This document shows, in pieces, positions 15,207 to 42,293 of a DNA stretch of 51,366 nucleotides. A model generated the notes under the pieces. The model searched no databases and had not been told where the DNA came from. It saw nothing but the letters and a program-made list of their open reading frames with translations. Position numbers and translations under genes: made by a program. The stretch comes from Catellatospora coxensis. GTDB taxonomy: Bacteria; Actinomycetota; Actinomycetes; Mycobacteriales; Micromonosporaceae. The stretch is taken from the NCBI RefSeq assembly GCF_016862635.1, contig NZ_BONI01000068.1, positions 1 to 51,366 of the forward strand. The letters are read 5' to 3'. How positions within the stretch are numbered: the first letter of the stretch is position 1; every line of letters begins with the position of its first letter.

Positions 15207-15233
15207 GTCCCGCCGAACCGGAGGAGGACGACC

Positions 15234-26844: not shown

Positions 26845-26848
26845 CCTC

Positions 26849-26882
26849 AGCCGGCGCCGCTCCTCGCCGGGCGGCGCCGGCT
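26849..26882 (+). terminator. Terminator after aldo/keto reductase
   Basis: Perfect 11-bp stem AGCCGGCGCCG / CGGCGCCGGCT with a 12-nt loop, 4 nt after the stop, followed by CGCTCTATTT. Confidence 0.8.
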
Positions 26883-26971
26883 CGCTCTATTTCGGACGGT
26901 CATTGCCGACCTGAGCTGCTGATATGCGGCATACTTGCATGTGTTCGGGCCGAAATCACGACCTTGTATGG

Positions 26972-27000
26972 TTGACACTGTCGATGCGTGTCGCAAGAAT
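26972..27000 (+). promoter_or_regulatory. Promoter of the diaminopropionate-type biosynthetic operon
   Basis: -35 TTGACA (26972-26977), 17-bp spacer, -10 AAGAAT (26995-27000): one of the strongest sigma-70-like matches in the window. The region GACAC...GTGTC forms a small dyad overlapping it, a possible operator. Transcription would begin near 27006, about 185 nt before the first candidate start codon. Confidence 0.65.
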
Positions 27001-27190
27001 TACCTCCGGTCACCCCCGGGTGCGGCATCGCGACTGATGCTGCGCTCCCTCACCCCTGCCGGATCGTGCCGCCACGATCGCCGGACGGGGTGCCTTCTTG
27101 CTGCCCTCAGCGGGCCAGCGACTGCGCGCAACGGGGCTCGCGGACGATCCGTCACGCCATGATGCAGCCAGGGTCCGAAAGAGATGCGCC
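27001..27190 (+). promoter_or_regulatory. Long structured 5' leader of the biosynthetic operon
   Basis: No gene is evident. It contains a strong hairpin near 27060-27090: GATCGTG / CACGATC with loop CCGC, flanked by CCG and CCGG that extend the stem. A leader of this length with a stable stem can host attenuation or a regulatory RNA. I could not match it to a known riboswitch by eye. Confidence 0.4.
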
Positions 27191-27274
27191 GTGTCCGAAC
27201 GAACCATGCCCTCGTTCCGGGAAGTTCGCGCCGCAGCCGTACGCGCCGGGGAACCGGCGAGGCCGGCCCGGTGA
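27191..27274 (+). CDS. Possible 27-residue leader peptide overlapping the sbnA-like start
   Basis: GTG 27191 opens a 27-codon frame starting MSERTMPSFREVRAAAVR and rich in Arg and Ala. Its TGA (27272-27274) overlaps the GTG start of the next gene as GTGA, the same coupling used at most junctions in this operon. A purine-rich GAAAGAGA lies upstream. It could be a translational-coupling leader or a small functional peptide. No homologue is known to me; the coding call rests on the overlap geometry only. Confidence 0.4.
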   Translation: MSERTMPSFREVRAAAVRAGEPARPAR

Positions 27275-28263
27275 GCTCCGCCCGCGGCACCTGCTTCGTC
27301 CCGCTGATGGTGGGCAACACCCCGCTGGTGGTGGTGCGCCTGCGCGTCGGCGGGCGGGCCGCCACCCTGCGGCTGAAGCTGGAGTCCTTCAACCCCTGCG
27401 GATCCATGAAGGACCGCACGGCGGTCGCGCTGTACGACTCGGTGGCGGACAAGCTCGACCCCGCCGTCGGCATCGTCGAGTCGACCTCCGGCAACCTCGG
27501 GGTGGCCCTGGCGAGCCTGGCCCGCGCCAACCGCGTCCGCTTCACCGCGGTCGTCGACCCGCGGGTGCCCTCGGCTGCCCTGCACGAGCTGCGCCGCCTC
27601 GACGCGACCCTGGTGCTGGTCGACGAGGAGGACGGCCGCGGCGGCTACCTGATGAACCGGCTGCGCCGGGTGCGGGAGCTGCTCGCCGAGCAGCCGGCCC
27701 TGTGCTGGACCAACCAGTACGACAACCCCGCCAACCCGCGCGCCCACGAGTTCGGCACCGCGCCCGAGCTGGCCGCGCAGGTGCCCGGGGACAGCGTGGT
27801 GCTGGTCGCGGTGTCCACCGGCGGCACGCTGGCCGGCATCCGCCGCTACGCCGCCGGGGCGACCCGCTGGGACGTGCGCGGCGTCGACGTGTACGGCTCG
27901 TACGCCGTCGGGCACGTGCCGGGCCGGCGGGTGCTGCCCGGCATCGGCTCCAGCCGCCGCTCGGAGTTCGCCGCGGCCGTCGACGGCCCCACCGAGTGGG
28001 TCGGCACCGACGACGCGGTGGCTGCCTGCCTGTGGCTGCTGGAGTCGTGCGGCATCGGCGTCGGGGCCAGCGCCGGGGCGCTGGTGTCGGCGGCGCTGCG
28101 CCTGATCGAACGCGAGGGTCTCGACGACGTCGTGTGCGTGTGCCCGGACGGGGCCCGCAACTACCTGAGCACCGTGTACTCGGCGGGGTGGCGGCGCGCG
28201 CACGGGGTCGACCCGGTGCCGCCGGCCGCCGTGTGCGAGTCGGTGGACTGGGAGGCGCCGTGA
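27271..28263 (+). CDS. SbnA-like PLP enzyme, 2,3-diaminopropionate biosynthesis (cysteine synthase fold)
   Basis: A 330-residue fold-type II PLP protein. VGNTPLVVVRL opens the family core. K47 in SFNPCGSMKDRTA is the Schiff-base lysine, VESTSGNLGVALA is the substrate/PLP loop, VSTGGTLAGI binds phosphate, and GVGASAGALVSAAL is the C-terminal pyridine-N serine region. Cysteine synthase homologues paired with an ornithine-cyclodeaminase homologue (here at 29183) make N-(1-amino-1-carboxy-2-ethyl)-glutamate from O-phosphoserine and glutamate (SbnA). Start GTG 27271 is chosen for the GTGA overlap with the upstream frame; 27184 is possible. Ordinary cysteine synthesis is unlikely in this context. 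Confidence 0.8.
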   Translation: MSSARGTCFVPLMVGNTPLVVVRLRVGGRAATLRLKLESFNPCGSMKDRTAVALYDSVADKLDPAVGIVESTSGNLGVALASLARANRVRFTAVVDPRVPSAALHELRRLDATLVLVDEEDGRGGYLMNRLRRVRELLAEQPALCWTNQYDNPANPRAHEFGTAPELAAQVPGDSVVLVAVSTGGTLAGIRRYAAGATRWDVRGVDVYGSYAVGHVPGRRVLPGIGSSRRSEFAAAVDGPTEWVGTDDAVAACLWLLESCGIGVGASAGALVSAALRLIEREGLDDVVCVCPDGARNYLSTVYSAGWRRAHGVDPVPPAAVCESVDWEAP

Positions 28264-29180
28264 GCGAGTCGCCGCTGGCCGACTGGCACGAGCGGGCCGG
28301 GGTGCGGGTCGATCCGCGCCGGGTGCTCGGCGGCGACCTCGACGCCGGCAAGGTGCTGTTCCCGGAGCGGCTGATCCCTTACCTGGCGCATCCGCTGGTC
28401 GCCGGGCTCGACCCGGGGACCCGCGAGCAGCTGGTGGCGCGGCACGCGTACCAGTACTTCGCGTTCACCGCGCACTTCGAGACCCGGGTGGTCAACCGGG
28501 CCACCGAGCTCATCGCCAACGGCCGCACCGACGTCGTGCTCGGCGGCGACGTGCGCGAGGACGCGTACAAGATCTACTGCGACGAGGCGTACCACGCGCT
28601 GTACTCGTTCGACGTGGTACGGCAGCTGGAGGCGGCCACCGGCGTCGCCGCGCTGCCGTACACGTTCGAGCCGGTGATCACCGAGCTCGACGCCGTCGCC
28701 GCCGAGTGCCTGCCGCAGGCCGGGTCGCTGCCGTACCTGCTCCAGGTCGTGGTGTTCGAGACGCTGATCACGAGCCTGCTCGCCGAGCTGCCCAACGATC
28801 CCGACCTGGTCGGCCTGGTGCGCACCACGGTTCGCGACCACGCCCGCGACGAGGGCCGCCACCACGCCTACTTCGCCCGTTTCTTCCGGGAGCTGTGGAC
28901 CGGCTGCGACCTGCGTACCCGGCGCGAGATGGCGACCGCGCTGCCCCGGCTGATCACCCAGAGCCTGCGCCCGAATCAGGACGCCGTCGCCGCGACGCTG
29001 CGCGCGGCGGGACTGGCCGAGCCGCAGGTGCGCGACGTGCTCGCCGACGTGTACGCCCCGGACCGGGTCCGGCAGACCGCCCGTGAGCAGTCCGTGCAGT
29101 CGGTGCGGCTGTTCCGGGCCGCCGGAGTGCTCGACCTGCCCGGCGCCGACGAGGCGTTCGCCCAGGAAGGACTGATCTGA
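28260..29180 (+). CDS. AurF-type diiron amine N-oxygenase
   Basis: A 306-residue all-helical protein with the complete AurF-type ligand set in the right order and spacing: E74 (AHFETR), E109 and H112 (CDEAYHAL), E167 (VVFETLI), H194, E198 and H201 (RDHARDEGRHHAYF). AurF and CmlI oxidise aryl amines to nitro groups through a peroxo-diiron intermediate. Here it sits between the two diaminopropionate genes, with GTGA overlap to the first and 2 nt before the second. An aliphatic amine substrate derived from diaminopropionate is the natural hypothesis but unproven. Confidence 0.85.
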   Translation: MSESPLADWHERAGVRVDPRRVLGGDLDAGKVLFPERLIPYLAHPLVAGLDPGTREQLVARHAYQYFAFTAHFETRVVNRATELIANGRTDVVLGGDVREDAYKIYCDEAYHALYSFDVVRQLEAATGVAALPYTFEPVITELDAVAAECLPQAGSLPYLLQVVVFETLITSLLAELPNDPDLVGLVRTTVRDHARDEGRHHAYFARFFRELWTGCDLRTRREMATALPRLITQSLRPNQDAVAATLRAAGLAEPQVRDVLADVYAPDRVRQTAREQSVQSVRLFRAAGVLDLPGADEAFAQEGLI

Positions 29181-29182
29181 AC

Positions 29183-30271
29183 GTGTCCACAGAGGAACTC
29201 ACCCGGACGCCCTGGTTCACCGCCGGGCTGCGCGGCCTGGGCGGCGCGGGACCGGTGCTGCTGATCTCCCGGGACGAGGTGGCGCGCTGCCTGGCGCTGC
29301 TGGATCCGGTGGCGATCGTGCGGGAGGCCCTGGTCGACCACCACGCGGGCCGCACCGTGCTGCCCGCCGAGGCGTACCTGCGCTGGGACAACGACCAGGG
29401 GGCCTACACCCGCTCGATCGCGATGCCCGGCGGTGTCGTGCGCGACGGCGGCCCGGCCGCGTACGGCATGAAGATCATCAACGCGAGCGTGTCCAATCCC
29501 GCCGCGGGCCTGGAACGGGCCGGCGGCGTCGGGCTGTGCTTCGACCCGCAGACCGCCCGGATCAGCGCGATCATCGAGATCGGCCTGATCAGCTCGGTAC
29601 GCACCGCCGCGGTGTCACTGGTCGGCGTGCAGGCGGCCGGGCACGCCGACGCGACCTGCCTGGCCGTGCTGGGTTGCGGCACGCAGGGCGGCACCCACCT
29701 GTTCCTGCTCGCCGACCGGCTGCCCGGCCTGCGCCGGGTCGCGCTGCACGACGCCGAACCGGCGGCCGCCGCGGCCCTGGCCGAGCGGGTGCGCCGGCAC
29801 CGCCCCGGGATCGAGGTGGCGGTGCTGCCCGACGCCCGAAGCGCGTTGCGCGACGCCGAACTCGTGGTCACCGCGACCACCGCCGACGACGGCTACCTCC
29901 CGCCGGACTGGATCAGGCCCGGCGCGGCGGTGGTCAACGTGTCCCTGGCCGACCTCACCGCCGAGGCCCTGCTGCAGGCCGGGCGGCTCTACGTCGACGA
30001 CGTCGAGCTGGTGGAGCAGAACCCGCGCCGCCCGCTCGGCCGGCTCATGCAGCAGGGCCTGGTCACCGCCCCGGGTTCGACCGGCGGCGGCCGCCCGATC
30101 GACGCGACCATCGGCGCGCTCGCCGCCGGGGCCGTGACCGCCGCGCCGCCGGCGCCCACGTCGTACACGGTGATCAACCCGTTCGGCATGGGCGTGCTGG
30201 ACGTGGCGCTGCTCGACGCGATCCGGCGCGCCGCGACCGGCCTGGGCCTGGGCACGGAGGTGGCGCTGTGA
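29183..30271 (+). CDS. SbnB-like NAD-dependent dehydrogenase (ornithine cyclodeaminase/mu-crystallin family)
   Basis: A 362-residue protein. The N-terminal substrate domain has AYGMKIINASVSNPAAGLERAGGVGLCFD and ISSVRTAAVSLVG (family 'RTaA' motif). The Rossmann domain has LAVLGCGTQGGTHLFLL, and the cofactor region continues with LVVTATTADDGYLPPDWIRPGAAVVNVS. Next to an SbnA homologue it should oxidise the ACEGA intermediate to L-2,3-diaminopropionate and 2-oxoglutarate. It starts 2 nt after the diiron gene and overlaps the next gene by GTGA. Ornithine cyclodeaminase itself is less likely because there is no proline-related context. Confidence 0.82.
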   Translation: MSTEELTRTPWFTAGLRGLGGAGPVLLISRDEVARCLALLDPVAIVREALVDHHAGRTVLPAEAYLRWDNDQGAYTRSIAMPGGVVRDGGPAAYGMKIINASVSNPAAGLERAGGVGLCFDPQTARISAIIEIGLISSVRTAAVSLVGVQAAGHADATCLAVLGCGTQGGTHLFLLADRLPGLRRVALHDAEPAAAAALAERVRRHRPGIEVAVLPDARSALRDAELVVTATTADDGYLPPDWIRPGAAVVNVSLADLTAEALLQAGRLYVDDVELVEQNPRRPLGRLMQQGLVTAPGSTGGGRPIDATIGALAAGAVTAAPPAPTSYTVINPFGMGVLDVALLDAIRRAATGLGLGTEVAL

Positions 30272-31248
30272 CCACGACGCAGCCCCCGCAGGTCACGCCC
30301 GCGCTCGTCGACGTCGCGCGCAACCGCCGCCGCAGCCTGCTCAGCGTGCGGCAGCTGACCGCGGCGCAGCTCGACGCGCTCGTCGAGCGGTCGGTGGGCA
30401 TCGCCGCCGCGCCCGCCGACGTCGCCCCGGTGCTGGACGGGCTGGTGGTCGCCACGCTGTTCGAGCGCACCTCTACCCGCACCCGCACCGCGTTCAGCGT
30501 CGGCGCGCTGCGCCTGGGCGCGAAGCTGCTCACCTACGACGCGGCCGGGCTGCAGCTGCAGACCGGCGAGACCATCGAGGACACCCTGCGGGTGCTCGGG
30601 CTCATGCTCGACGGCGTCGTCATCCGCAGCACCCGTACGCTGGCCGAACTCGACGGGCTGCTCGACCGGGGCGCGCCGCCGATCGTCAACGCGATGGCCC
30701 GCGAGGAGCACCCCACTCAGGCCGTCTGCGACCTGGCCACGATGCGCGCCCACCTCGGGGCGCTCGGCGGGATCTCCGTGCTGTACGTGGGAGAGGGCAA
30801 CAACTCCGCCTCCGCGCTGGCGTACGCGCTGGCCCGGGTGCCCGGCGCGAAGCTCTCGCTGTACGTGCCGCCCGGCTACGGCCTGCCCGAGGAGCAGCTG
30901 GCGCTCGCCGTCGCCGACGCCGCGGCGCACGGCGCGCAGGTCCGGCAGGTCGAGCGGGCCGACGAGCTGCCCGACCACGTCGACGTCGTCTACACCACAC
31001 GCTGGCAGACGACAGGCACCAGCAAACCCGACCCGGCCTGGCGCGAGACGTTCCGCCCGTACCACGTCGACGAGGCGTTCCTGGGCCGCTGGCCGGCCGC
31101 CCGCTTCCTGCACGACCTGCCCGCCCACCGCGGCGAGGAGGTCACCGGCGCGGTGCTCGACGGCCGGGCCAGCCTGGCCTGGCAGCAGGCGCGGATGAAG
31201 CTGTGCAGCGCCATGGCGGTGCTGGAGACCTGCTGGACGGCGCGATGA
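30268..31248 (+). CDS. OTC-fold N-carbamoyltransferase with altered acceptor site
   Basis: A 326-residue aspartate/ornithine transcarbamylase homologue. Carbamoyl-phosphate motifs are intact: ERTSTRTRTAFSVG (S69-R73) and EEHPTQAVCDL (H148-Q151). Ornithine-binding motifs are not. The usual YTDVW.SMG is YTTRWQTTG (residues 242-250) and HCLP is HDLP (282-285). Viomycin/capreomycin-type relatives carbamoylate diaminopropionate residues, so N-carbamoyl-diaminopropionate (albizziine) or a derivative is a reasonable product. It overlaps the SbnB-like gene by GTGA. Arginine biosynthesis is unlikely. Confidence 0.85.
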   Translation: MTTTQPPQVTPALVDVARNRRRSLLSVRQLTAAQLDALVERSVGIAAAPADVAPVLDGLVVATLFERTSTRTRTAFSVGALRLGAKLLTYDAAGLQLQTGETIEDTLRVLGLMLDGVVIRSTRTLAELDGLLDRGAPPIVNAMAREEHPTQAVCDLATMRAHLGALGGISVLYVGEGNNSASALAYALARVPGAKLSLYVPPGYGLPEEQLALAVADAAAHGAQVRQVERADELPDHVDVVYTTRWQTTGTSKPDPAWRETFRPYHVDEAFLGRWPAARFLHDLPAHRGEEVTGAVLDGRASLAWQQARMKLCSAMAVLETCWTAR

Positions 31249-31277
31249 CCACGCCGTGGCGAAAGGACGGATGAGGC

Positions 31278-32636
31278 ATGCAACCCGCGGTTCTGCTCGT
31301 GTACGCCAAAGGCGGCCCGGCCCTGGAGTTCCTGCTGCCCCGGCTGGTGAGCCGGGCGCTGGTGGACGTGCTGCTGATCGGCGAACCCCAGGCTTGGCAG
31401 CGTGAGCTGCTGGAACGGCTCTGCCGACGGGTTGTTCCCGCCGATCCGTCGGCCGCCCTGCCCGACGAGATCGTCCGGGTGGCCACCGAGCTGCGCAGCG
31501 ACGGGGTGCTGACGTTCTCCGAGTTCTGCGTCGTCGCCACCGCGCAGGCCTGCCTGCGGCTGGGCATCCCGGGGCCGGGGGAGGGCGCGGCCCGCTCGCG
31601 CGACAAGGTGCTGATGCGCCAGGCGTGGCAGGCGGCCGGCGTGCCCAATCCGGCGTTCCGGCCGGTGGACTCGCTGGCGGAGCTGGAGGCGGCCCGCGCC
31701 GAGATCGGCGGCGACGTGATCGTCAAGTCGGCGCTGGGCGCGGGCTCCATCGGGCAGGCGATGCTCAGCCCGGGTGAGGACGGCGCGGCGGTGTGGCGCG
31801 AGGTCGAGGCCGCCACCGAAGCGGCCCGCCGCTCCGGCATGAGCGAGCACGGCGACCGCACCGGCCCGCGCTACCTGGTCGAGGAGATCATCCAGTCCAG
31901 CGTGGACGGCTGGTACGACCAGCCCGGCTACGGCGACTACCTCAGCGTCGAAGGCCTGGTGGCCGGCGGGGTCTACCACCCGGTGTGCCTGACCGCCCGG
32001 CTGCCGACCGTGCCGGTGTTCGTCGAGCTGAGCAACCACGCGCCCTGCACGCTGGCCCCCGAGCTGCAGCAGCGCATCGCCGACGTGTGCCGCCGGGCGG
32101 TCGACGCGCTGGGCCTGGACACCTGCGCCACGCACACCGAGGTCAAGCTGATGCCGGACGGCACCGTGCGGCTGCTGGAGTCCGCCGCGCGGGCCGGTGG
32201 CGCGGCGGTCACCCGCGAGCTGGTCGAGGCGTACGGCGTGGACCTGATCGGGCTGCAGCTGGCGGCCGCGCTCGGGGAGCGTCCCGCGGTGCCGGACCGG
32301 TTGCTGCTGCCCGCCGACGCGCGTGGCGCTGCCGCGTCGCTGTCGGTCATCGCCGTCGACTCCACCGGCAAGCCCTGGTCGTCGCTGCCGCCGTTCCGGC
32401 CCGACCTGGTCGCCTGGGAGGAGCTGGTGTCCGCCGGCACCACCGTCGAGCTGGTGCGCGGGCAGTCCCAGCCGCTCGGCGCCCCCATGCCCGCGTTCCA
32501 CCCGCACACCGGGGTGCTGGCGTACGCGGGCCTGCTGCTGGTCCGCGCCGCCGATCCGCTGACCCTGCGCGACGACTGCTACCGCATCCTCGACGGCCTC
32601 GAAGAGGCCATGACCAGGGCCGCTGCCGACGCCTGA
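31278..32636 (+). CDS. ATP-grasp amino-acid ligase
   Basis: A 452-residue ATP-grasp enzyme. The N-terminal pre-ATP domain starts AVLLVYAKGG. The ATP-binding subdomain has RSRDKVLMRQAWQAAGVPNPAF, GGDVIVKSALGAGSIGQ and RYLVEEIIQ. The catalytic core CATHTEVKLMPDGTVRLLESAARAGGAAVTRELVEAYGVDLI contains the Mg/ATP Glu residues, as in BacD/DdaF-type L-amino-acid ligases. These join a carboxylate to an amine through an acyl phosphate. It lies 29 nt after the carbamoyltransferase with GATGAGGC before the ATG. It may couple a diaminopropionate derivative to another amino acid or cyclise it. Confidence 0.85.
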   Translation: MQPAVLLVYAKGGPALEFLLPRLVSRALVDVLLIGEPQAWQRELLERLCRRVVPADPSAALPDEIVRVATELRSDGVLTFSEFCVVATAQACLRLGIPGPGEGAARSRDKVLMRQAWQAAGVPNPAFRPVDSLAELEAARAEIGGDVIVKSALGAGSIGQAMLSPGEDGAAVWREVEAATEAARRSGMSEHGDRTGPRYLVEEIIQSSVDGWYDQPGYGDYLSVEGLVAGGVYHPVCLTARLPTVPVFVELSNHAPCTLAPELQQRIADVCRRAVDALGLDTCATHTEVKLMPDGTVRLLESAARAGGAAVTRELVEAYGVDLIGLQLAAALGERPAVPDRLLLPADARGAAASLSVIAVDSTGKPWSSLPPFRPDLVAWEELVSAGTTVELVRGQSQPLGAPMPAFHPHTGVLAYAGLLLVRAADPLTLRDDCYRILDGLEEAMTRAAADA

Positions 32637-32706
32637 CCGAGCACCACCGCCGATCGAGTACGCACCGCCGCCGCCGCGGCGGCATCCGAGCGAAAGCGAG
32701 ACTGCC

Positions 32707-34467
32707 ATGTCCCTCGTGCTGGGGCTGAACCTGAGCCACGACCGTTCCGCCTGCCTGGTCCGCGACGGCGAGATCGTCGTCGCGATCGAGGAGGAGCGGC
32801 TCGACCGGATCAAGCACTCGGAGGGCTTTCTCATCCAGGGCCACTTCGAACGCCTGACCAAGACGATCCCGATCAAGTCGGTGGCGTACTGCCTCGACGC
32901 CGCCGACGTGGGCATCGACGACCTGGACCTGGTGGTCGGCAACCGGCCGCTGGGCGACGGTGCGGTGTGGCGCATCCGCCGCGACCTGCCGATCCGGGAC
33001 AAGTCGAAGATCCGGGAACTGCCGCTGCCCGGCCACCACCTCGGGCACGCCTCGGTGGCGTTCTACCCGTCCGGGTTCGAGCAGGCCGCGGTGCTCGTCG
33101 TCGACCAGGCCGGCGCGCGGTGGCCGGGCACCGGCCGGATCGAGAAGCACACCCTGTTCCGGGGTGAGGGCAGCAGACTGACCCGGGTCGCGGCCGTGGA
33201 CTACCCGTCGGACTACTCGGACATGAGCCTGGGCCTGTTCTACGACTTCTTCACCACCAAGCTCGGCTTCGTCACCCGCTACGGCACCGCCGACTGGGGC
33301 GTGTTCGGCTGCGGCGGCTACCCGGAGGCGGGCAAGACGATGGGCCTGGCCCCGTACGGGCGGCCGCGGCCGGACTGGGGCAACTGGCTGGCCTTCGACG
33401 GGTTCGACATCAAGGTGTCGCAGCAGTCCCTGGAGGACATCTGGCAGCGGCTGCTGGCCGCCGAAGGCGGCGAGTTCTCCGCCGCCGACCCGCTGCGCTG
33501 GCAGACCCAGTTCGCCAAGGACGTGGCCCGCAAGATCCAGGACGAGCTGGAGACGGCCATGCTGCACCTGGCCGAGCACGCCCGGGAGGTCACCGGGTTG
33601 GACCGGCTGTGCCTGGCCGGCGGGGTGCTGCTCAACTCGGTGGCCAACGAGCGGGTGCGGGCCGAGTCCGGGTTCACCGACGTGTTCATCCCCGCCCCGG
33701 CGGGCGACTCCGGCGTGGCCATCGGCGCGGCCCTGTACGGCAGCATCGAGCTGCTGGGCGAGGCCCGGCCGGCGCCGATGCGGCACGCGTCGTTCGGCCG
33801 CGCGTACACCCGCACCGAGGTGCTGGAGGCGCTGGCCACCGTCACCGGCTACACCGGCGTGGAGCTGACCTGCCGCGACGCGGGCCCGCGCGACGTCGCC
33901 GAGCTGCTGGCCGGGCACCAGGTCGTCGGCTGGTTCAACGGCGGCTCCGAGATGGGGCCGCGGGCGCTGGGCCACCGCAGCATGCTCGCCGACCCGCGCC
34001 ACCCCGAGATGCGCGACTACCTCAACAACGTGGTCAAGCACCGCGAGCCGTTCCGCCCGTACGCCCCGTCGGCGGTGGCCGAGGAGGCCGGCAAGTGGTT
34101 CGACTTCTCCGGGGAGAGCCCGTTCATGCTGCTCGTGCCGAAGGTGGCCGGGCACGCCCAGCAGCTGCTGCCCGCCGTCACGCACGTCGACGGCACCGCG
34201 CGGCTGCAGACCGTCTCGGCCGAGGCCAACCCCGCCTACCACCAGGTCATCGCCGAGTTCGGCGCGCTGACCGGGGTGCCGATCGTGCTCAACACGTCGT
34301 TCAACGACGCCGGTGAGCCGATCGTGGAGACGCCGCTGCACGCGCTGTGCACCTTCGTACGCACCGAGATGGACCACCTCTACCTGGACGGGCTGCTCGT
34401 CTCCAAGGCCGGCCGGGACCTGCCCGCCGCGCACCCCGCCCGCTCCCCGCTGGCCGCGGCCCGCTGA
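32707..34467 (+). CDS. NodU/TobZ-family O-carbamoyltransferase
   Basis: A 586-residue two-domain enzyme. The N-terminal Kae1-like domain starts VLGLNLSHDRSACLVRDGEIVVAIEEERLDRIKHS and has HHLGHASVAFYPSGF (metal/carbamoyl-AMP site histidines), TMGLAPYGRP and LCLAGGVLLNSVANE. The C-terminal YrdC-like half has WFNGGSEMGPRALGHRSMLADPR, REPFRPYAPSA and VLNTSFNDAGEPIVETP. TobZ-type enzymes convert carbamoyl phosphate and ATP to carbamoyl-adenylate and transfer the group to a hydroxyl, often on a sugar. In this cluster a sugar or N-hydroxyl acceptor is possible. It follows the ATP-grasp gene by 70 nt with a weak ribosome site. Confidence 0.9.
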   Translation: MSLVLGLNLSHDRSACLVRDGEIVVAIEEERLDRIKHSEGFLIQGHFERLTKTIPIKSVAYCLDAADVGIDDLDLVVGNRPLGDGAVWRIRRDLPIRDKSKIRELPLPGHHLGHASVAFYPSGFEQAAVLVVDQAGARWPGTGRIEKHTLFRGEGSRLTRVAAVDYPSDYSDMSLGLFYDFFTTKLGFVTRYGTADWGVFGCGGYPEAGKTMGLAPYGRPRPDWGNWLAFDGFDIKVSQQSLEDIWQRLLAAEGGEFSAADPLRWQTQFAKDVARKIQDELETAMLHLAEHAREVTGLDRLCLAGGVLLNSVANERVRAESGFTDVFIPAPAGDSGVAIGAALYGSIELLGEARPAPMRHASFGRAYTRTEVLEALATVTGYTGVELTCRDAGPRDVAELLAGHQVVGWFNGGSEMGPRALGHRSMLADPRHPEMRDYLNNVVKHREPFRPYAPSAVAEEAGKWFDFSGESPFMLLVPKVAGHAQQLLPAVTHVDGTARLQTVSAEANPAYHQVIAEFGALTGVPIVLNTSFNDAGEPIVETPLHALCTFVRTEMDHLYLDGLLVSKAGRDLPAAHPARSPLAAAR

Positions 34468-35693: not shown

Positions 35694-35716
35694 CCGCGGG
35701 TGCGCCGGCCGCGCCG

Positions 35717-36724
35717 TCAGCGGTCGGCGTACAGGACCGCCAGCTCGCGGCGCAGCAGCGGCGGGCTCTGCTCGACGAGCTTGAGCAGCGCGTCGGCCTC
35801 GGCGAGGGTCATCGCGTGCTCCCAGCGCCTGCGGAACAGGAACGCGTCGAGGGCCTGGTGCCGGCGGCAGAAGTGGTCCAGGTTGCGCATCAGCTGGGCG
35901 CGCATGACGCGCTGCGCCACCGCCGGGTTCGGGTCGGCCAGCGGGTGCACCTGGTGGTAGTTGACCGCCGTGGTGCGCACCGAGAACGCGACCCCCGCCC
36001 GGTGCAGCCGGTAGCTCAGGTCGGTGTCCTCCAGCCCCCAGCCGGTGAACGACTCGTCGAAGCCGCCCACCTCCTTGACCGCGGCCCGGCGCACCGACAG
36101 GTTCGCGGTCGTGGCCAGGGCCCAGCCGAACCGGAAATCGGCCAGCTCGGGTCCGTACTGTTCGACGATCGCGTGGTAGTTGTCGGGCTCGTCGCCGAGT
36201 TCGGTGCGGGCGAACGCGGCGGCCGGGTCGGCGGCCACCTCGCCCGGCGCGAGGAAGTGGATCGGCACGGCCAGCCGCTCGACACCGCCGACCCGGTCGA
36301 CCAGGGTCAGCAGGTCCTGCTCGCCGAGCGGCAGGAGGCCGGGCCGCCACCAGGTCAGCGCCCGGCGCTTCCAGCCGATGACGCCGTCGCGGTCGTGCCG
36401 CGCCGCCGCGACGTGCTCGGCGACGAACTCCGGCGCGGCCATCCGGTCGTCGTCCAGGAAGACGATCAGCTCGCCGTCGGCGTGGGCCAGCGCGGTGTTG
36501 CGGGCGGCGGCCCGGCCCCGGTTCTCCTGGGTGATCAGCCTGATGTCGAGCCGGTCGCGCAGCGGCGCGACGACGTCCTCGACGCCGCCGGCGGTGCCGT
36601 CGTCGCAGAGCACGACCTCGAATCCGGGGTACGTCTGCGCGAGCAGCGACTCCAGGGTGAGTGCCAGGTACTCACGCTTGTCGCAGGTCGCCATCACCAG
36701 GCTGACCGGGAGCCGTTCTACCAT
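35717..36724 (-). CDS. GT2 glycosyltransferase with galactosyltransferase-type C-terminal domain
   Basis: A 335-residue GT-A enzyme. The start PVSLVMATCDKREYLALTLESLLAQTYPGFEVVLCDDGT binds the nucleotide. ENRGRAAARNTALAHADGELIVFLDDDRMAAPEFV carries the DxD metal motif, and FTGWGLEDTDLSYRLHRAGV is the ED-containing acceptor/base segment of the GT7-C module found in chondroitin-synthase-like enzymes. No membrane helix, so it glycosylates a soluble small acceptor. The start at 36724 overlaps the P450 stop by 7 nt; last gene of the leftward operon. Confidence 0.87.
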   Translation of the reverse strand: MVERLPVSLVMATCDKREYLALTLESLLAQTYPGFEVVLCDDGTAGGVEDVVAPLRDRLDIRLITQENRGRAAARNTALAHADGELIVFLDDDRMAAPEFVAEHVAAARHDRDGVIGWKRRALTWWRPGLLPLGEQDLLTLVDRVGGVERLAVPIHFLAPGEVAADPAAAFARTELGDEPDNYHAIVEQYGPELADFRFGWALATTANLSVRRAAVKEVGGFDESFTGWGLEDTDLSYRLHRAGVAFSVRTTAVNYHQVHPLADPNPAVAQRVMRAQLMRNLDHFCRRHQALDAFLFRRRWEHAMTLAEADALLKLVEQSPPLLRRELAVLYADR

Positions 36725-38121
36725 CCGAGCCTCCACCGCTCGTCGCCGTACAGGTCCACCATCTCGTTGAGGTCGCCCTCGACCCGGTCCACGCGCGACG
36801 GCACCGCCGACACGGGGTGCGCGACCACGGGCACCGGCCCCTTCGGCGACATCAGCAGCCCGACCTCGCGCGAGACGGGGTTGCCAGGCACGGGGACCAG
36901 CACGTGGCGGCTGAGGATCGCGCCGAGCACGATCTTCATCTCCAGGTCGGCGAAGGCCGCGCCGATGCACACGTGCGGCCCGGCGCCGTAGGGCAGGTAC
37001 TCGTACCGGGTGGGGCTCGCCGTCTCCCAGCGCTCGGGCTGGAACCGCAGCGGCTCGGGGAATCGGGCCGGGTCGCGGTGGGTGACGTACTTGCTGGTCA
37101 CGACCTGGCACCAGGCGGGGATCTCGTGCTCGCCGAGCATCGTCGGCGCGACCGTGATCCGGGCGGTGTTCGGCCCCGGCGGCAGCAGCCGCAGCGTCTC
37201 CTTGAGAATGCGGTCGAGCACCGTGGACCCGGCGTGCTCCTCCGGAGTGCGCCCGGCGGCGGCGTCGAGCACCTCGTCGAGGTCGGGGCGGTGCTGCGAG
37301 AGCAGGATCAGCGCCCAGGACAGCGTGCTGGACGACGTCTCGTGCCCGGCGACCAGCAGCGTCGTGAGCTGCCCGACGAGCTGGTCGTCGGACAGGCCCC
37401 GGCCCTGCTCGTCCCGGTCGGCCAGCAGCGACTGCAGCAGGTCGGGCTGCTCGCCGGCGGACCGCCGGGCGTCCACGATGGAGGCCAGCGCGTCGTCCAG
37501 CCGCCGGATGACCGTCAGCAGCCGCCGGTACGGCGTGCCGGGCAGGTCGAACGGGAAGTAGCGGATCGGCGTGGCGAAGTAGCGCAGGGCCAGCATCTGC
37601 TGCACCAGCGCGCCGATCGAGTCGGCGTCGCGGGCGATGTCGACGCCGAAGAAGCACTGGCAGGCGATCCGCAGGGTGAGCCGGCGCATGCTCGCGGTCA
37701 GGTCGAACGCCCGCCCCGGCACCCACGAGTCGACCTCCTCCGCGGCGAGCCGGGCGATGACGGCGGCGTGGCGGCCCATCGCCTGCGGTCGGAACGACGG
37801 CGTCACGGTGTGCCGGGCCGCGCGGTGGTCGGGGCCGTTCATGTTGAGCAGCCCGATGCCGCGGCGCGCCTGCCGGATCCGGGCCGGGATCGCGTACTCC
37901 AGCACGGTGTGGAACACGTCGCCGCCGGTCAGCACCGTCCGGTTGTGCTCCGCGCCGAACGCGAACACCTGCCGGCGGTCGCCGTGCACCAGGCCGCTGA
38001 CCGGGCCGAACTCGTGGTGCAGGCGCGCGGTGTAGGCGACCGGATCGGCGGCGTACGCGTGCGCGTTGCCGCGCCGGCCCGTCCAGCGCGACGGCGGCGG
38101 ACCCGGGACCGGCCGGCTCAC
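36718..38121 (-). CDS. Cytochrome P450
   Basis: A 467-residue soluble P450. I-helix AGHETSSST (258-266) provides the acid-alcohol pair in variant form, the K-helix ExxR is ETLR (308-311), PERW is in QPERW, and the heme loop is YGAGPHVCIG with Cys385. Tyr replaces the usual first Phe of the heme signature. GTG 38121 overlaps the preceding stop (GTGA). No ferredoxin gene is adjacent, though a flavoprotein heads this operon. Likely a tailoring oxidase of the product. The overall pattern suggests a CYP102/CYP110-like clan, not the typical actinomycete CYP105/107. Confidence 0.9.
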   Translation of the reverse strand: MSRPVPGPPPSRWTGRRGNAHAYAADPVAYTARLHHEFGPVSGLVHGDRRQVFAFGAEHNRTVLTGGDVFHTVLEYAIPARIRQARRGIGLLNMNGPDHRAARHTVTPSFRPQAMGRHAAVIARLAAEEVDSWVPGRAFDLTASMRRLTLRIACQCFFGVDIARDADSIGALVQQMLALRYFATPIRYFPFDLPGTPYRRLLTVIRRLDDALASIVDARRSAGEQPDLLQSLLADRDEQGRGLSDDQLVGQLTTLLVAGHETSSSTLSWALILLSQHRPDLDEVLDAAAGRTPEEHAGSTVLDRILKETLRLLPPGPNTARITVAPTMLGEHEIPAWCQVVTSKYVTHRDPARFPEPLRFQPERWETASPTRYEYLPYGAGPHVCIGAAFADLEMKIVLGAILSRHVLVPVPGNPVSREVGLLMSPKGPVPVVAHPVSAVPSRVDRVEGDLNEMVDLYGDERWRLGW

Positions 38122-39206
38122 TCGGCGTACCAGCCGGGATACGGCCGTTCGAGGCCCGCCTGCCCGCCGTGCCGGAACGCCGTTGCCGCGAAGCGCCCAG
38201 CCGGCCCGCGCAGCGCCGACACGGTCGTCATCGGCAGGTAGCGCCGGAACAGCCCCGGGAACGCGGTCGCGAACGCGCGTTCGGCCAGCGGTCCGGGCTC
38301 GGGGCGCACCGGCTCCGGCGTGGCCAGCCCGAGCATGAAGCAGGTCGTCCAGTACTCGAACAGGGTCAGCTCGCTGACCGCGCCGGTCAGCGCCGGCTCG
38401 GCGGCCAGGTCGGCGTAGAAGCGCCCGGACAGGTCCGCCTTGCGTTGCCCGTCGGGCAGCCTGGTGTCGGCGAACTCGCCGAGCCAGGCCAGCTCGCCCT
38501 CGTCGCCGCAGTAGAACCACTCGGCGTGCACCCGCATCCAGGACGCCCACGGCACCCAGGTCAGGCCGTCACCCGCCACGGGGGTGCCGAAGTCGACGGG
38601 CGCGTCGCCGTCGGCGGGGCAGGCGGCGTGCCGCAGGCCCTGGAAGCCGTTGCCGGTCAGGCTGAGGTGGTCGTCGTGCTCCAGCAGGTGCGGCACGGTG
38701 ACCAGGGTGCGCCGCCCGGTGGCGCGCAGGTGCGCCGCCAGGGCGAGGTCGTCCGCGCCGGTGGGGTCGGTGATGCTCGCGGCGAAGTCGAGCGCCGCCT
38801 GCCGGGGCAGCACCAGGCCCTGCGACGGGGTGTACACGTCGACGGCCCGCGCCCAGGACCAGCCCTGCCAGGCGGCGGCGCGGACCAGGCCGGCGGTGCG
38901 CGAACCCCACTCGCAGAACAGGCTGACCGCGTCGTCGGGCCGGGCCCGCACGGCCCGGTGCAACTGCTCGGCGAACCCGGCGCAGGGGATGACGTCGTCC
39001 TGCAGCACCAGGTGGTGGGTCGCGCCGTCGCCGGCCGCGGCCCAGGCCCGTACGGCGTTGCCGAGGTTGCCGCGCCCCGGCTCGCCGGTGTCGACGACCA
39101 GGTCGGGAGACAGCTCGGTGAGTTCGTCGGCGAGCGCGCGGGCGCGGTCGGCCCGCGCCGGATGAGTCATGATCACCGTCGACAGCCGGACGTCACTGTG
39201 CGGCAT
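38118..39206 (-). CDS. GT-A-like glycosyltransferase (divergent)
   Basis: A 362-residue protein. The N-terminus LSTVIMTHPARADRARALADELTELSPDLVVDTGEPG resembles the first beta-alpha-beta of GT-A enzymes. GNLGNAVRAWAAAGDGATHHLVLQDDVIPCAGF holds a DD motif at the metal position, and PTGADDLALAAHLRATGRR could be the acceptor-side acidic motif. The C-terminal ~140 residues are unlike families I know. The start at 39206 overlaps the GT1-like gene by 14 nt. It may be a second, unusual transferase or a GT-fold protein with another task. Confidence 0.6.
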   Translation of the reverse strand: MPHSDVRLSTVIMTHPARADRARALADELTELSPDLVVDTGEPGRGNLGNAVRAWAAAGDGATHHLVLQDDVIPCAGFAEQLHRAVRARPDDAVSLFCEWGSRTAGLVRAAAWQGWSWARAVDVYTPSQGLVLPRQAALDFAASITDPTGADDLALAAHLRATGRRTLVTVPHLLEHDDHLSLTGNGFQGLRHAACPADGDAPVDFGTPVAGDGLTWVPWASWMRVHAEWFYCGDEGELAWLGEFADTRLPDGQRKADLSGRFYADLAAEPALTGAVSELTLFEYWTTCFMLGLATPEPVRPEPGPLAERAFATAFPGLFRRYLPMTTVSALRGPAGRFAATAFRHGGQAGLERPYPGWYAE

Positions 39207-40440
39207 GGACGCTCCTCGTGATCCGGTGCAGGGCGACGGCGCGCTCCACGTGGTCGATCATCGCCTGCGCGCCGTCGGCGGCCCGCAGCGTGGCCGCGAA
39301 CGCCGTGTGCGCCGCGCGGTCCGGCGGGGCCAGTATCGACCTGATCTTCTCGGTGACGGCCTCCACCGGATCGTCCGGCGCGACGGTCGTGCCCAGGCCC
39401 AGGTCGGTGATGCGGCCGGCGTTGCCGCGCTGCTCGGCCGAGTGCGGCACGAATACCAGCGGCGTCGCGCACAGCAGGCCCTCGATCATCGAGGAGTGGC
39501 CGCCGTGCACGACGGCGGCGGTGGCGCGGGCCATCAGGTCGACGGCGTCGTGCCGGAAACCCACGACGTCGACCTCGGCGTCGCCTGCGGCGGCCCGCAC
39601 CTGCGCGGCGAGGGCTTCGCTGCCAGGACCTTCGACGCCCAGCGTGACCGCCATCGGCACGCCGAGCCCGCGGGCGGCGGCGACCACGCGGAGCAGGTCC
39701 TTGTCCCCGGCGCCGCTGCCGCCGAGGGTGATGTTGAGCAGCGGCGCGCGCTCGCCGTGCTCCGGCGCCGTGCCGCTCGCGCCTGCCGCGACCGCCGGCA
39801 CCGCGCACAGCTCGGCCGGAATCAGGGCTCCGATGTGGCGGATCTCGCTGACCAGGCTGGTGACCAGGCCCATCGTCTCGGCGGGCACGTCGGACAGCGG
39901 GTCGAGCAGCGCCAGATCCGGCACCAGCATCGCGTCGCCGAGCACCTTGCCGGCGTGCACGTCGGCGATGCCGAGCTGGTCGAGGGTGATGAGCACCTCG
40001 GGCAGCACGGCGTGCATCGGGTGCCGGAACAGCCGCAGGTTGTGGCAGGTGACACTGGGCAGCCCGCGCATGGCGGCGGCCACCGAGGCGGTGTTGCGCA
40101 TGTCGCTGACCACCAGGTCGGGCCCGAAGCCGTCGATCGCGCGCAGCTCGTCGGCCAGGCAGGTCTCGACGTACGCGGGACTGGCCAGCCGGGTGCGGGC
40201 GAACGCGCGCAGCTCCGCGACGTCGTCCATGCCGCGCCAGGCGGGCGCGGGCCCGATCTCGTCGATGCCGATCCAGGGCAGCCCGGCCCGTTCGACGATC
40301 GGGCGGACCTCCTCGTGGGCGGCGACGGCGACCTCGTGCCCGGCGAGCCGGAAGCGCTGCGCGGCCGTGCGCATCCGGGTGACGTGGCCGAGGCTGGAGC
40401 GGCTGAACGCCACGAACAGCACCCGCAGCGGAGTGGTCAT
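39193..40440 (-). CDS. GT1/GT28-like glycosyltransferase
   Basis: A 415-residue GT-B enzyme. The N-terminal acceptor domain starts LRVLFVAFSRSSLGHVTRMRTAAQRFRLAGHEVAVAAHEE. The C-terminal donor domain has LLNITLGGSGAGDKDLLRVVAAA and the UDP/NDP-sugar signature VVHGGHSSMIEGLLCATPLVFVPHSAEQRGNAGRITDLGLG (HGG...E, then the Q of AEQRGNA). It should transfer an activated sugar to the cluster product. The ATG overlaps the MFS stop (ATGA). No sugar-nucleotide biosynthesis genes are present, so a housekeeping sugar is likely the donor. Confidence 0.87.
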   Translation of the reverse strand: MTTPLRVLFVAFSRSSLGHVTRMRTAAQRFRLAGHEVAVAAHEEVRPIVERAGLPWIGIDEIGPAPAWRGMDDVAELRAFARTRLASPAYVETCLADELRAIDGFGPDLVVSDMRNTASVAAAMRGLPSVTCHNLRLFRHPMHAVLPEVLITLDQLGIADVHAGKVLGDAMLVPDLALLDPLSDVPAETMGLVTSLVSEIRHIGALIPAELCAVPAVAAGASGTAPEHGERAPLLNITLGGSGAGDKDLLRVVAAARGLGVPMAVTLGVEGPGSEALAAQVRAAAGDAEVDVVGFRHDAVDLMARATAAVVHGGHSSMIEGLLCATPLVFVPHSAEQRGNAGRITDLGLGTTVAPDDPVEAVTEKIRSILAPPDRAAHTAFAATLRAADGAQAMIDHVERAVALHRITRSVHAAQ

Positions 40441-41666
40441 CGGACTGCTTCCTCCAGGGTGAGCGTGCGCGGGGTGCGCACGGCGACGACCAGGCCGGCC
40501 AGGGCGCACGCGGCCAGCAGCGCCAGGGCCTGGCGCGGCCCGGCGACCTCGGTGAGCCAGCCGCACAGCAGCGTGCCCAGCGGCACCGAGCCCCACGCGA
40601 TCATCCGGCCGACCGCGTTGACCCGGCCCTGCAGGCTCAGCGGGGTGATCACCTGCCGTACCGAGATGCCCACCACCATGAAGCAGGTGTGCACGGTGTT
40701 CCAGCACAGCAGGGCGGCCAGCGCCACGGCCCAGTTCGGCGCGGCGGCGTACGCCAGCAGCAGGACGAGGTCCGCACCGATCAGCCAGCGTGCGGTCGGG
40801 ACCGGGGGCGCGTTCTTGAGCCGCCGGGCCGCGAGTGCCCCGAGCAGCGCGCCGACCCCGCACGCGGTCATGATCCAGGCCAGCCGGTAGTCGTCGGTGG
40901 GCAGGCCGAGTGCCCGCGAGGCGAAGACCACGAGCATGCCGTACACCGCGCCGGCGCTGATCCCGACGCCGATGTTGACGATCGTGTACGCGCGCAGCAG
41001 CGGCTGCCCGCCGATGAACCGCAGGCCCGCCCAGATCGCGCCGCGCTCCCGTGCCCGGCCCGGCTCCGGCGCGGCGGCGTCCGGCAGCCGCAGCAGCGCG
41101 ATCAGCACCGCCGACACCAGGTAGAAACCGGCCAGCACGGCGAACGTCGGGCCGAGCCGCAACGCGTCCAGCAGGAAGAAGCCGACGGGTGCGGCGACCG
41201 AGGTGACGACCGTGCCGGCCATCCACAGGTAGCTGTTGGCGCGGAACACCCCGTCCTTGCCGACGACCGCCGGGATGGCCGCGGAACTGGCCACCTCGAA
41301 CCACACGTACACGGTGGCGGAGGCGAAGCCGACCAGGATCAGCGCCGCGGGGTGCGTGCCGACGGCGCCCGCCAGCAGCGGCACGCACAGCAGCACGGCG
41401 GCGTTGCCGGTCTCCATCCACACCATGACCCTGGTCGGCGACGACCGGTCGACGACCGCCCCGGCGAGCAGCCCGAACACCAGGAACGGCAGCACGTTGA
41501 CGGCCGAGGCCAGCGCCGCGACGAGCGCGGACCCGCTGGAGCGGTACACGTACAGCGGCAGCAGCACCCACAGGATCGAGTACGCCACCGTCGAGGCGAA
41601 CTTGCTGGCGACGAGCAGGCCGAGCCCGCTGCCGGCGGACGAGCCGGCCTTGGCGATCACGGTCAC
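40437..41666 (-). CDS. MFS transporter, EntS-like exporter
   Basis: A 409-residue, 10-12-helix transporter of the MFS_3/EntS-type group. GLLVASKFASTVAYSILWVLLPLYVYRSSGSALVAALASAVNVLPFLVFGLLAGAVVDRSSPTRVMVWME contains the family's first helices and motif A variant. LQGRVNAVGRMIAWGSVPLGTLLCGWL is characteristic near helices 10-11. It starts with GTG at 41666, 4 nt after the flavoprotein gene. It is the second exporter of the convergent cluster. Confidence 0.87.
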   Translation of the reverse strand: MTVIAKAGSSAGSGLGLLVASKFASTVAYSILWVLLPLYVYRSSGSALVAALASAVNVLPFLVFGLLAGAVVDRSSPTRVMVWMETGNAAVLLCVPLLAGAVGTHPAALILVGFASATVYVWFEVASSAAIPAVVGKDGVFRANSYLWMAGTVVTSVAAPVGFFLLDALRLGPTFAVLAGFYLVSAVLIALLRLPDAAAPEPGRARERGAIWAGLRFIGGQPLLRAYTIVNIGVGISAGAVYGMLVVFASRALGLPTDDYRLAWIMTACGVGALLGALAARRLKNAPPVPTARWLIGADLVLLLAYAAAPNWAVALAALLCWNTVHTCFMVVGISVRQVITPLSLQGRVNAVGRMIAWGSVPLGTLLCGWLTEVAGPRQALALLAACALAGLVVAVRTPRTLTLEEAVR

Positions 41667-41669
41667 GGG

Positions 41670-42293
41670 TCAGGAGGTCCTTCCGACGCGCCGCTCGACC
41701 TCTTCGGGCCGCGGCAGCCTCGTCCCCGACTCGATCAGCGCCGTGCCGACGTCGACGATCCGGTCGACGGTGCGGCGCAGCGCGTCCATGCCCTCGGTGT
41801 CGGACAGGATGCCCTGCTCGCCGCCGGAGTGGATGGTCACCGGGAAGCCGCTGCCGACCAGGATGAAGCGGTTGAGCAGCAGGTTGTGCAGCAGCTGGGC
41901 GTGCACGTCGAGGTGGCCGTAGCGGCGGCCGACGACGATCGCCGCGCCGATGGTGTTGGTCAGCGGCCGGGTGAACCGCAGGTGGCCGACCCCGGCGCGC
42001 TCGATGAAGGTCTGCATGAGCGACGACAGCCCGAATCCGTGCACCGGGGCGGCGAAGACGACCGCGTCGGCCTCGATCATCGCGGCGACCACCTCGCCGA
42101 CGCTGTCGTCGACCGGGCAGGGGTCGGGCCGGGAGTTGCAGGCCCCGCAGTCGCAGGCGAGCACCCGCTGCTCGGCCAGGTTGATGACCTCGGTCCGGCA
42201 GCCGCGCTGCTCGGCGTGGGAGGCGACCTCCTGCGCGGCCTGCCACGTCGAACCCCTGCTGCGCTCGGATCCGTTGATCGCCAGAATCTTCAT
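41670..42293 (-). CDS. NADPH-dependent FMN reductase / iron-sulfur flavoprotein-like
   Basis: A 207-residue flavodoxin-fold protein. FMN phosphate loop INGSERSRGSTW (7-18) and a compact cysteine motif ACDCGACNSRPDPC (C47, C49, C52, C59) followed by DD resemble Isf-type proteins, which may hold a 4Fe-4S cluster. ADAVVFAAPVHGFGLSSLMQTFIERAG is the family dimer/FMN segment. It is the first gene of the leftward cluster operon (start at 42293, GGGTGAG upstream). It could supply electrons to the P450 or reduce an N-oxygenated intermediate; both are inference. Confidence 0.83.
   Translation of the reverse strand: MKILAINGSERSRGSTWQAAQEVASHAEQRGCRTEVINLAEQRVLACDCGACNSRPDPCPVDDSVGEVVAAMIEADAVVFAAPVHGFGLSSLMQTFIERAGVGHLRFTRPLTNTIGAAIVVGRRYGHLDVHAQLLHNLLLNRFILVGSGFPVTIHSGGEQGILSDTEGMDALRRTVDRIVDVGTALIESGTRLPRPEEVERRVGRTS

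What the first reader, a model, noticed from the sequence alone, without database searches (positions are those of the whole stretch)
26972..42293. Candidate biosynthetic gene cluster for a diaminopropionate-derived, N-oxygenated, carbamoylated, glycosylated product
Seen: two convergent operons with nearly every junction overlapping. Rightward: SbnA-like, AurF-like, SbnB-like, OTC-like, ATP-grasp, NodU-like, MFS. Leftward: flavoprotein, MFS, GT1-like, GT-A-like, P450, GT2. Established: SbnA/SbnB homologues make L-2,3-diaminopropionate; AurF enzymes oxidise amines; TobZ/NodU enzymes O-carbamoylate; ATP-grasp ligases form amide bonds. Inference: the set would build a small non-NRPS metabolite with N-O chemistry and up to two carbamoyl groups. 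I know no described cluster with this exact combination; viomycin-type and alanosine-type pathways share only parts.
Basis: partly seen in the sequence, partly recalled or inferred. Interest (0 to 1): 0.9.

Follow-up and report, generated by a model that had tools for sequence, protein, structure and literature searches.

The report
Diaminopropionate N-oxidation and carbamoylation gene cluster
A seven-gene bacterial operon that appears to build, oxidise and twice carbamoylate an unusual amino acid sits beside, but is separate from, an older sugar-attaching operon; its product looks like an undescribed small peptide.

Summary
The genes are real and the family names mostly right, but the reading as ONE cluster is not supported. 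The rightward operon (R1-R7) is complete in three closely related Micromonospora-type genomes without the leftward one; the leftward operon (L1-L6) is complete in five same-genus and five Glycomyces genomes without the rightward one. In two same-genus genomes the flanks of the rightward operon are neighbours, so it is a ~8.7 kb insertion beside an older operon, and glycosylation of its product is unsupported. R1/R3 match the capreomycin enzymes CmnB/CmnK best. R4 carries HDLP and TRWQTTG, motifs of diaminopropionate-type transcarbamylases, not ornithine ones. R2 keeps the AurF metal ligands; R5 is BacD-like, R6 TobZ/GdmN-like. An R4-like gene accompanies AurF in 25 of 80 AurF-type loci. Best reading: L-Dap is N-oxygenated and N-carbamoylated to a (hydroxy)ureidoalanine, O-carbamoylated, ligated to an amino acid and exported. 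Boldest reading not excluded: two carbamoyl groups on one N-OH close to a quisqualate-type ring; my literature searches found no bacterial route of that kind. All chemistry is inferred.

The parts
26880..35703 (.). R operon insertion relative to same-genus genomes (flanks align up to ~26838-26879 and from 35704-35717; relative to G092 the left border is ~27010)
   Evidence: blastn against G084, G086, G087 and G092 stretches; border sequences
27271..28263 (+). R1, PLP enzyme, CmnB/SbnA-like (L-Dap synthesis, first half); GTG start 27271 preferred, ATG 27184 possible
   Evidence: Pfam PALP; best PDB hit CmnB 194.8 bits, SbnA 147.3; start candidates
28260..29180 (+). R2, AurF-family diiron N-oxygenase
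   Evidence: PF11583 81 bits; E74, E109, H112, E167, H194, E198, H201 invariant in A1 and aligned with AurF 3chh; that these are the metal ligands is recalled
29183..30271 (+). R3, CmnK/SbnB-like dehydrogenase (L-Dap synthesis, second half)
   Evidence: PDB CmnK 252.8 bits
30268..31248 (+). R4, diaminopropionate-type transcarbamylase (STRTR, HPTQ, TRWQTTG, HDLP)
   Evidence: sequence; below the NCBIfam OTC cut-off
31278..32636 (+). R5, BacD-like ATP-grasp amino-acid ligase
   Evidence: PDB BacD 148.4 bits
32707..34467 (+). R6, TobZ/GdmN/NodU-type O-carbamoyltransferase
   Evidence: Pfam Carbam_trans_N and C; GdmN and TobZ hits
34467..35693 (+). R7, MFS exporter
   Evidence: conserved in place in three genomes; start
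35717..36724 (-). L6, GT2 glycosyltransferase (leftward operon, judged separate)
36718..38121 (-). L5, cytochrome P450 (leftward operon, judged separate)
38118..39206 (-). L4, unassigned protein, weak GT-A-like fold (leftward operon, judged separate)
39193..40440 (-). L3, GT-B-type glycosyltransferase (leftward operon, judged separate)
40437..41666 (-). L2, MFS (leftward operon, judged separate)
41670..42293 (-). L1, FMN-reductase-fold protein with a Cys cluster CDCGACNSRPDPC (leftward operon, judged separate)

Best explanation
The rightward operon is a self-contained, inserted biosynthetic cluster for a small peptide-like metabolite. R1 and R3 make L-2,3-diaminopropionate (from phosphoserine and glutamate, as recalled for SbnA/SbnB). 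R2 oxygenates a nitrogen of it, most simply the beta nitrogen, to the hydroxylamine. R4 transfers a carbamoyl group from carbamoyl phosphate to the beta nitrogen, giving beta-ureidoalanine or its N-hydroxy form. R6 transfers a second carbamoyl group to an oxygen, most simply the N-OH. R5 joins the amino acid to another amino acid by an amide bond. R7 exports the product. The leftward operon is a separate, older pathway. Shown: gene content, conservation, conserved active-site motifs, insertion at a site that is empty in two relatives, separate occurrence of the two operons. Inferred: every substrate, the order of steps, the site of oxygenation and of O-carbamoylation, and the dipeptide.
For: R1-R7 in the same order in G270, G244, G286 without L genes (L4 search). 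R1 closest to CmnB and R3 to CmnK. R4 has HDLP and TRWQTTG, which passages of a review give as marks of diaminopropionate transcarbamylase (PMC4581275), while two other transcarbamylases of this genome have HCLP and DxxxSMG. AurF-family loci: 25 of 80 carry an R4-like gene in the fetched stretch, 25 of 25 with HDLP and 22 of 25 with TRWQTTG; SbnA-like genes in 19 of these 25, against 1 of the other 55 read from the listing. On a quick AurF tree the R4-linked label needs 4 changes, shuffled mean 23.7, 0 of 500 as low. AurF ligand positions conserved. R6 aligns with GdmN over residues 5-581 of 586.
Against: Nothing biochemical was tested. 6 of the 25 loci show no SbnA and 11 no SbnB in the stretch (some are short or end-of-contig). 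Seven of those eleven genomes were searched for SbnB elsewhere: two have one at 40-46%, five have none or only 31-32% matches; as the SbnB of other loci of this set is itself only 30-32% from R3, distant SbnBs are not excluded, but Dap is not certain to be the substrate throughout. R6-like proteins (64-65%) also stand without AurF or other R genes in two genomes of another family, one with a second NodU-like gene of 35% nearby, so R6 need not act on an N-OH. The three Micromonospora-type loci are syntenic at 90-94% DNA identity and count as one occurrence. MAG locus L091 shows no R3 or R7 (its contig ends ~1.2 kb before R1) but has a second ATP-grasp and another MFS.
Confidence: 0.6

Rival explanations
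1. One reading: both operons make one glycosylated product, the leftward glycosyltransferases and P450 decorating the Dap-derived core.
For: Direct adjacency (23 bp). A related AurF + 2 NodU + 2 ATP-grasp operon lies ~2.7 kb from the leftward operon in three Glycomyces genomes, and a fourth (G118) keeps what looks by eye like a remnant of that operon's first gene and promoter beside it. Two such neighbourhoods in different genera look unlikely by chance (my estimate, not computed).
Against: Complete leftward operon without R2 or R6 orthologues in five same-genus genomes; complete rightward operon without leftward genes in three genomes; empty site in G084 and G086. In Glycomyces the AurF operon lies on the opposite side of the leftward operon, and in G119 on another contig.
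Confidence: 0.12
2. The O-carbamoyl group on the N-O oxygen is a leaving group: heterolysis of N-O drives N-N bond formation (aza-Lossen type) or another rearrangement.
For: In the family-level search (354 genomes) 9 of 9 genomes with an R6-like protein of 66% identity or more have an AurF-like gene beside it. Chemical plausibility is from general knowledge.
Against: No cupin or similar domain linked to N-N formation among the R genes. R6-like proteins also occur without AurF.
Confidence: 0.1
3. AurF carries its nitrogen further, to nitroso or nitro, as AurF does with p-aminobenzoate, and the carbamoyl groups sit elsewhere.
For: Same family and ligand positions as AurF.
Against: Diaminopropionate transcarbamylases turn Dap into beta-ureidoalanine (passages of PMC6022934 and PMC4581275), which a nitro group at that nitrogen would block; the R4-linked label clusters on the AurF tree.
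Confidence: 0.1

Closest known systems
Capreomycin / viomycin Dap and beta-ureidoalanine enzymes (CmnB, CmnK, diaminopropionate transcarbamylase)
   Same: R1 and R3 hit CmnB and CmnK best in the PDB; R4 has the HDLP/RWQ motifs that review passages give for the transcarbamylase of these pathways
   Different: Here an AurF N-oxygenase sits in the cassette, and a BacD-like ligase, O-carbamoyltransferase and MFS follow; no NRPS among the R genes
L-alanosine pathway (ala/aln)
   Same: Reviewed as passing through N3-hydroxy-L-diaminopropionate (PMC11705231 passages)
   Different: Its proposed N-hydroxylase is a flavin-dependent acyl-CoA-dehydrogenase-like protein, not AurF, and it ends in a nitrosohydroxylamine
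Bacilysin ligase BacD
   Same: R5 aligns over residues 57-343 (148 bits); amide ligase plus MFS exporter logic (exporter comparison recalled)
   Different: Far below the NCBIfam BacD cut-off (157 of 850 bits); different warhead genes
Padanamide diaminobutyrate transcarbamylase
   Same: N-carbamoylation of a short diamino acid by an OTC-like enzyme with related motifs (passages)
   Different: Substrate is diaminobutyrate; whether an AurF gene is present there was not checked
Quisqualic acid of the plant Quisqualis indica
   Same: The proposed end point of the boldest reading has its ring
   Different: The plant route, as I recall it, joins a preformed ring to O-acetylserine; searches listed no bacterial route

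Membership tests
SbnA/SbnB 2,3-diaminopropionate synthesis pair | NCBIfam equivalog score cut-offs (TIGR03945, TIGR03944) | tested here: not met
   246.3 of 349.95 and 200.2 of 326.9 bits; top NCBIfam families for both but below cut-off; CmnB and CmnK score higher than the other PDB chains listed
Ornithine carbamoyltransferase | DxxxSMG and HCLP ornithine motifs; NCBIfam cut-off | tested here: not met
   TRWQTTG and HDLP instead (sequence); TIGR00658 199.8 of 280.85
Diaminopropionate transcarbamylase | STRTR, HPxQ, (T/S)RWQTTG and HDLP motifs | tested here: met
   sequence against PMC4581275 passages; PMC6022934 assigns the two RWQ variants the other way round, so Dap versus diaminobutyrate is not settled by motif alone
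Diaminopropionate transcarbamylase | Activity on L-Dap | not testable with these tools
   needs an assay
AurF family diiron oxygenases | Pfam PF11583 and seven metal-ligand positions | tested here: met
   81.2 bits over cut-off 29.6; positions aligned with 3chh; ligand identity recalled
AurF 4-aminobenzoate N-oxygenase proper | NCBIfam NF045603 cut-off | tested here: not met
   31.6 of 620
BacD alanine-anticapsin ligase | NCBIfam NF053745 cut-off | tested here: not met
   157.3 of 850
CmcH/NodU O-carbamoyltransferases | Kae1-like N domain and YrdC-like C domain | tested here: met
   Carbam_trans_N 126.6 and Carbam_trans_C 220.9 bits; GdmN 249.5 bits
NodU nodulation protein | NCBIfam NF041651 cut-off | tested here: not met
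   159.5 of 1000
Single cluster R + L | Co-inheritance of the two operons | tested here: not met
   a related AurF operon beside L in three Glycomyces genomes is the exception noted
MIBiG entry for the full set | Match to a described cluster | not testable with these tools
   no MIBiG on hand; ten paper searches listed no matching cluster

The most novel reading that the evidence does not exclude
The operon encodes a bacterial route to a quisqualate-type 1,2,4-oxadiazolidine-3,5-dione amino acid carried in a dipeptide. N3-hydroxy-Dap is N-carbamoylated by R4 and O-carbamoylated by R6; the ureido NH2 attacks the O-carbamoyl carbonyl and expels ammonia, closing the ring. This explains why one operon needs Dap synthesis, one N-oxygenase and two carbamoyltransferases of different kinds. 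Behind it stands a wider AurF + diaminopropionate-type-transcarbamylase module (25 of 80 AurF-type loci) that would make N-hydroxyureido amino acids. In the related Glycomyces-type operons the transcarbamylase was not found in the stretch but a second NodU is present, so the count of two carbamoyltransferases is kept; those operons also show no SbnA or SbnB, so their scaffold may differ.
Probability: 0.15. Interest if true: 0.8.

Novelty: new variant of a known kind. Interest (0 to 1): 0.55.

Why it matters
If the assignments hold, Dap and beta-ureidoalanine chemistry known from peptide antibiotics has been combined with aliphatic N-oxygenation and double carbamoylation outside any assembly line. 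The recurrent pairing of an AurF enzyme with a diaminopropionate-type transcarbamylase in many actinomycetes would be a general handle for finding N-hydroxyurea-type amino acids, and would extend AurF enzymes from aromatic to amino-acid amines. It also corrects the cluster boundary: work on the product should not assume the glycosyltransferases.

Tried and rejected
Rejected: one glycosylated cluster (above). R4 as an ornithine enzyme: rejected on motifs and because two canonical transcarbamylases lie elsewhere in the genome. A strict R6-AurF link was my first inference from the family search (9 of 9) and failed in two genomes of another family. PabA/PabB-like genes seen beside the Glycomyces AurF operon were first taken as a sign of an aromatic amine; a PabB-like gene precedes L1 also in G118, where no AurF gene was found, so they go with the leftward operon. 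A shared regulatory sequence between R and L promoters: the 25 most widely shared 12-mers of 14 upstream regions were shared only within Glycomyces. Structure of L4: model too poor to be decisive. Paper searches for the gene set, hydroxyureido amino acids, bacterial quisqualate and oxadiazolidines listed no matching pathway; the quisqualate listing was read as titles and abstract beginnings only.
Full report
Observation. The thirteen genes are present as described, and the family names stand except that L4 has no family match and its GT-A label rests on a poor model. Junction overlap is 7 of 11 from the coordinates, not nearly all.

Origin. The window lies in a 9.35 Mb genome. Genus g15 matches Glycomyces the same way.

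Two operons, two histories. R1-R7 are collinear in G270, G244 and G286 at 61-78% protein identity, with no L genes in the 34 kb fetched for each beyond weak P450 hits of 26-27%; these three loci are 90-94% identical in DNA and count as one lineage. A search for L4 in 354 genomes gave 13 proteins of 62% identity or more: the window, five same-genus genomes and seven Glycomyces genomes. All six L genes are present in the five same-genus genomes and in five of the seven Glycomyces genomes; in the other two only L1-L4 were found in the stretches fetched. In the five same-genus genomes R2 has no orthologue (G091: 39% and 36%; three others: E 6.5e-5 or weaker; G087: none) and R6 has no match at 1e-60. 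blastn shows that in G084 and G086 the aldo/keto reductase gene left of the R operon and the L6 gene right of it are neighbours (aligned flanks ~29 bp apart, or overlapping by 27 bp); in G087 and G092 1.66 and 1.21 kb of other sequence lie there. In G092 that sequence holds an apparently truncated chorismate-binding/glutamine-amidotransferase gene. For the fifth, G091, only the L operon itself aligned. The R operon is thus an insertion of about 8.7-8.8 kb into a variable slot beside a resident operon. G+C content does not mark it out (0.718-0.755 over the R operon, 0.72-0.755 over the L operon).

A caveat. In Glycomyces G110, G117 and G124 an operon of ATP-grasp, two NodU-like proteins (one 68% identical to R6), an AurF-like protein (48-49% to R2) and a second ATP-grasp lies about 2.7 kb from L1 (an MFS follows in L111 and L140), on the side opposite to that in the window. 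In G119 it is on another contig. In G118 it was not found but seems to leave a piece of promoter and first gene beside the L operon (by eye). G277 has a similar operon with no L genes found in its stretch. The repeated neighbourhood may reflect a shared hot spot or a loose functional tie; I cannot tell.

Chemistry. R1 matches CmnB (194.8 bits) above SbnA (147.3), and R3 matches CmnK (252.8 bits) above the other chains listed; both are below the NCBIfam SbnA/SbnB cut-offs. R4 has the carbamoyl-phosphate motifs STRTR and HPTQ but TRWQTTG and HDLP in place of DxxxSMG and HCLP. Passages of PMC4581275 give (T/S)RWQTTG and HDLP as marks of diaminopropionate transcarbamylase; passages of PMC6022934 give the same HDLP but assign the RWQ variants the other way. 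Two other transcarbamylases of this genome carry HCLP and DxxxSMG. R2 is in the AurF Pfam family; the seven positions I recall as AurF metal ligands are invariant in the ten aligned sequences and align with the AurF structure's sequence. R5 aligns with BacD, R6 with GdmN, the novobiocin carbamoyltransferase and TobZ.

A wider module. Of 80 AurF-type loci kept by one scan of GTDB genomes (86 found, 80 kept), 25 carry an R4-like gene in the fetched stretch; 25 of 25 have HDLP and 22 TRWQTTG. 19 of the 25 also have an SbnA-like gene and 14 an SbnB-like gene; among the other 55 loci the listing, which also asks for 35% coverage, shows one SbnA-like gene. In a quick maximum-likelihood tree of 84 AurF proteins the R4-linked label needs 4 changes against a shuffled mean of 23.7 (0 of 500 as low), and the five two-NodU operons form one group (SH-aLRT 95) beside an R4-linked protein (quick method, 23 forks open, several long branches). 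Nine of the 80 loci carry a methyltransferase family near AurF. Against a uniform Dap route: seven of the eleven genomes whose cluster shows no SbnB were searched; two have an SbnB-like gene at 40-46% elsewhere, five have none or only 31-32% matches, a level at which distant SbnBs also lie.

Reading. The most economical reading is Dap synthesis, N-oxygenation, N-carbamoylation, O-carbamoylation, amide ligation and export. The presence of an N-oxygenase and two kinds of carbamoyltransferase in one short operon suggests, but does not show, a doubly carbamoylated N-OH that could close to the ring of quisqualic acid. The ring idea is mine; no tool result shows it, and R6-like proteins without AurF warn against tying R6 to the N-OH.

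Literature. Seen beyond listings: passages of PMC11705231, PMC6022934, PMC4581275 and PMC11479980. The last names an AurF-domain protein and a putative carbamoyltransferase with near accession numbers among Streptomyces scabies proteins discussed with potato tubers; whether they share a cluster was not checked. No paper describing this gene set was listed. MIBiG was not available.

Noticed in passing
L084 (G118) about 14150-14900: By eye, a remnant of the ATP-grasp gene start and promoter of the Glycomyces AurF/NodU operon beside an intact leftward operon: the AurF operon was probably there and was lost.
   Followed up: partly
L077 (G092) 15221-16207: Apparently truncated chorismate-binding/glutamine-amidotransferase gene in the slot where the window has the R operon; PabB-like genes (and by eye a PabA-like gene in L111) precede L1 in Glycomyces. 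The leftward pathway may start from chorismate (an SgcD/SgcG-like logic is recalled, not tested).
   Followed up: partly
window 41670-42293: L1 carries a cysteine cluster CDCGACNSRPDPC, as in iron-sulphur flavoproteins (recalled), rather than being a plain FMN reductase.
   Followed up: no
L103, L109, L116, L121, L125, L126, L129, L135, L137, L142, L147: A second AurF group sits with a gene that looks by eye like tryptophan 2,3-dioxygenase (11 of 80 loci), suggesting an aromatic amine substrate.
   Followed up: no
L098 14043-15194 and relatives: A protein that looks by eye like a class I aminoacyl-tRNA synthetase fragment (no Pfam hit) recurs in 5 of 80 loci beside the Streptomyces cassette.
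   Followed up: partly
L224 and L226 (G774, G992): R6-like NodU proteins at 64-65% identity with no AurF or other R genes in ~35 kb; a second NodU-like gene (35%) lies ~8 kb away in G774.
   Followed up: partly
L039 7284-10199: In G270 a HemN-like radical SAM protein and an amino-acid permease lie directly upstream of R1; in the window other genes lie upstream of R1.
   Followed up: partly
window about 26970-27002: By eye, a sigma-70-like promoter (TTGACA, 17 bp, AAGAAT) at the left border, in sequence largely shared with G092, so the inserted operon may use a resident promoter.
   Followed up: no
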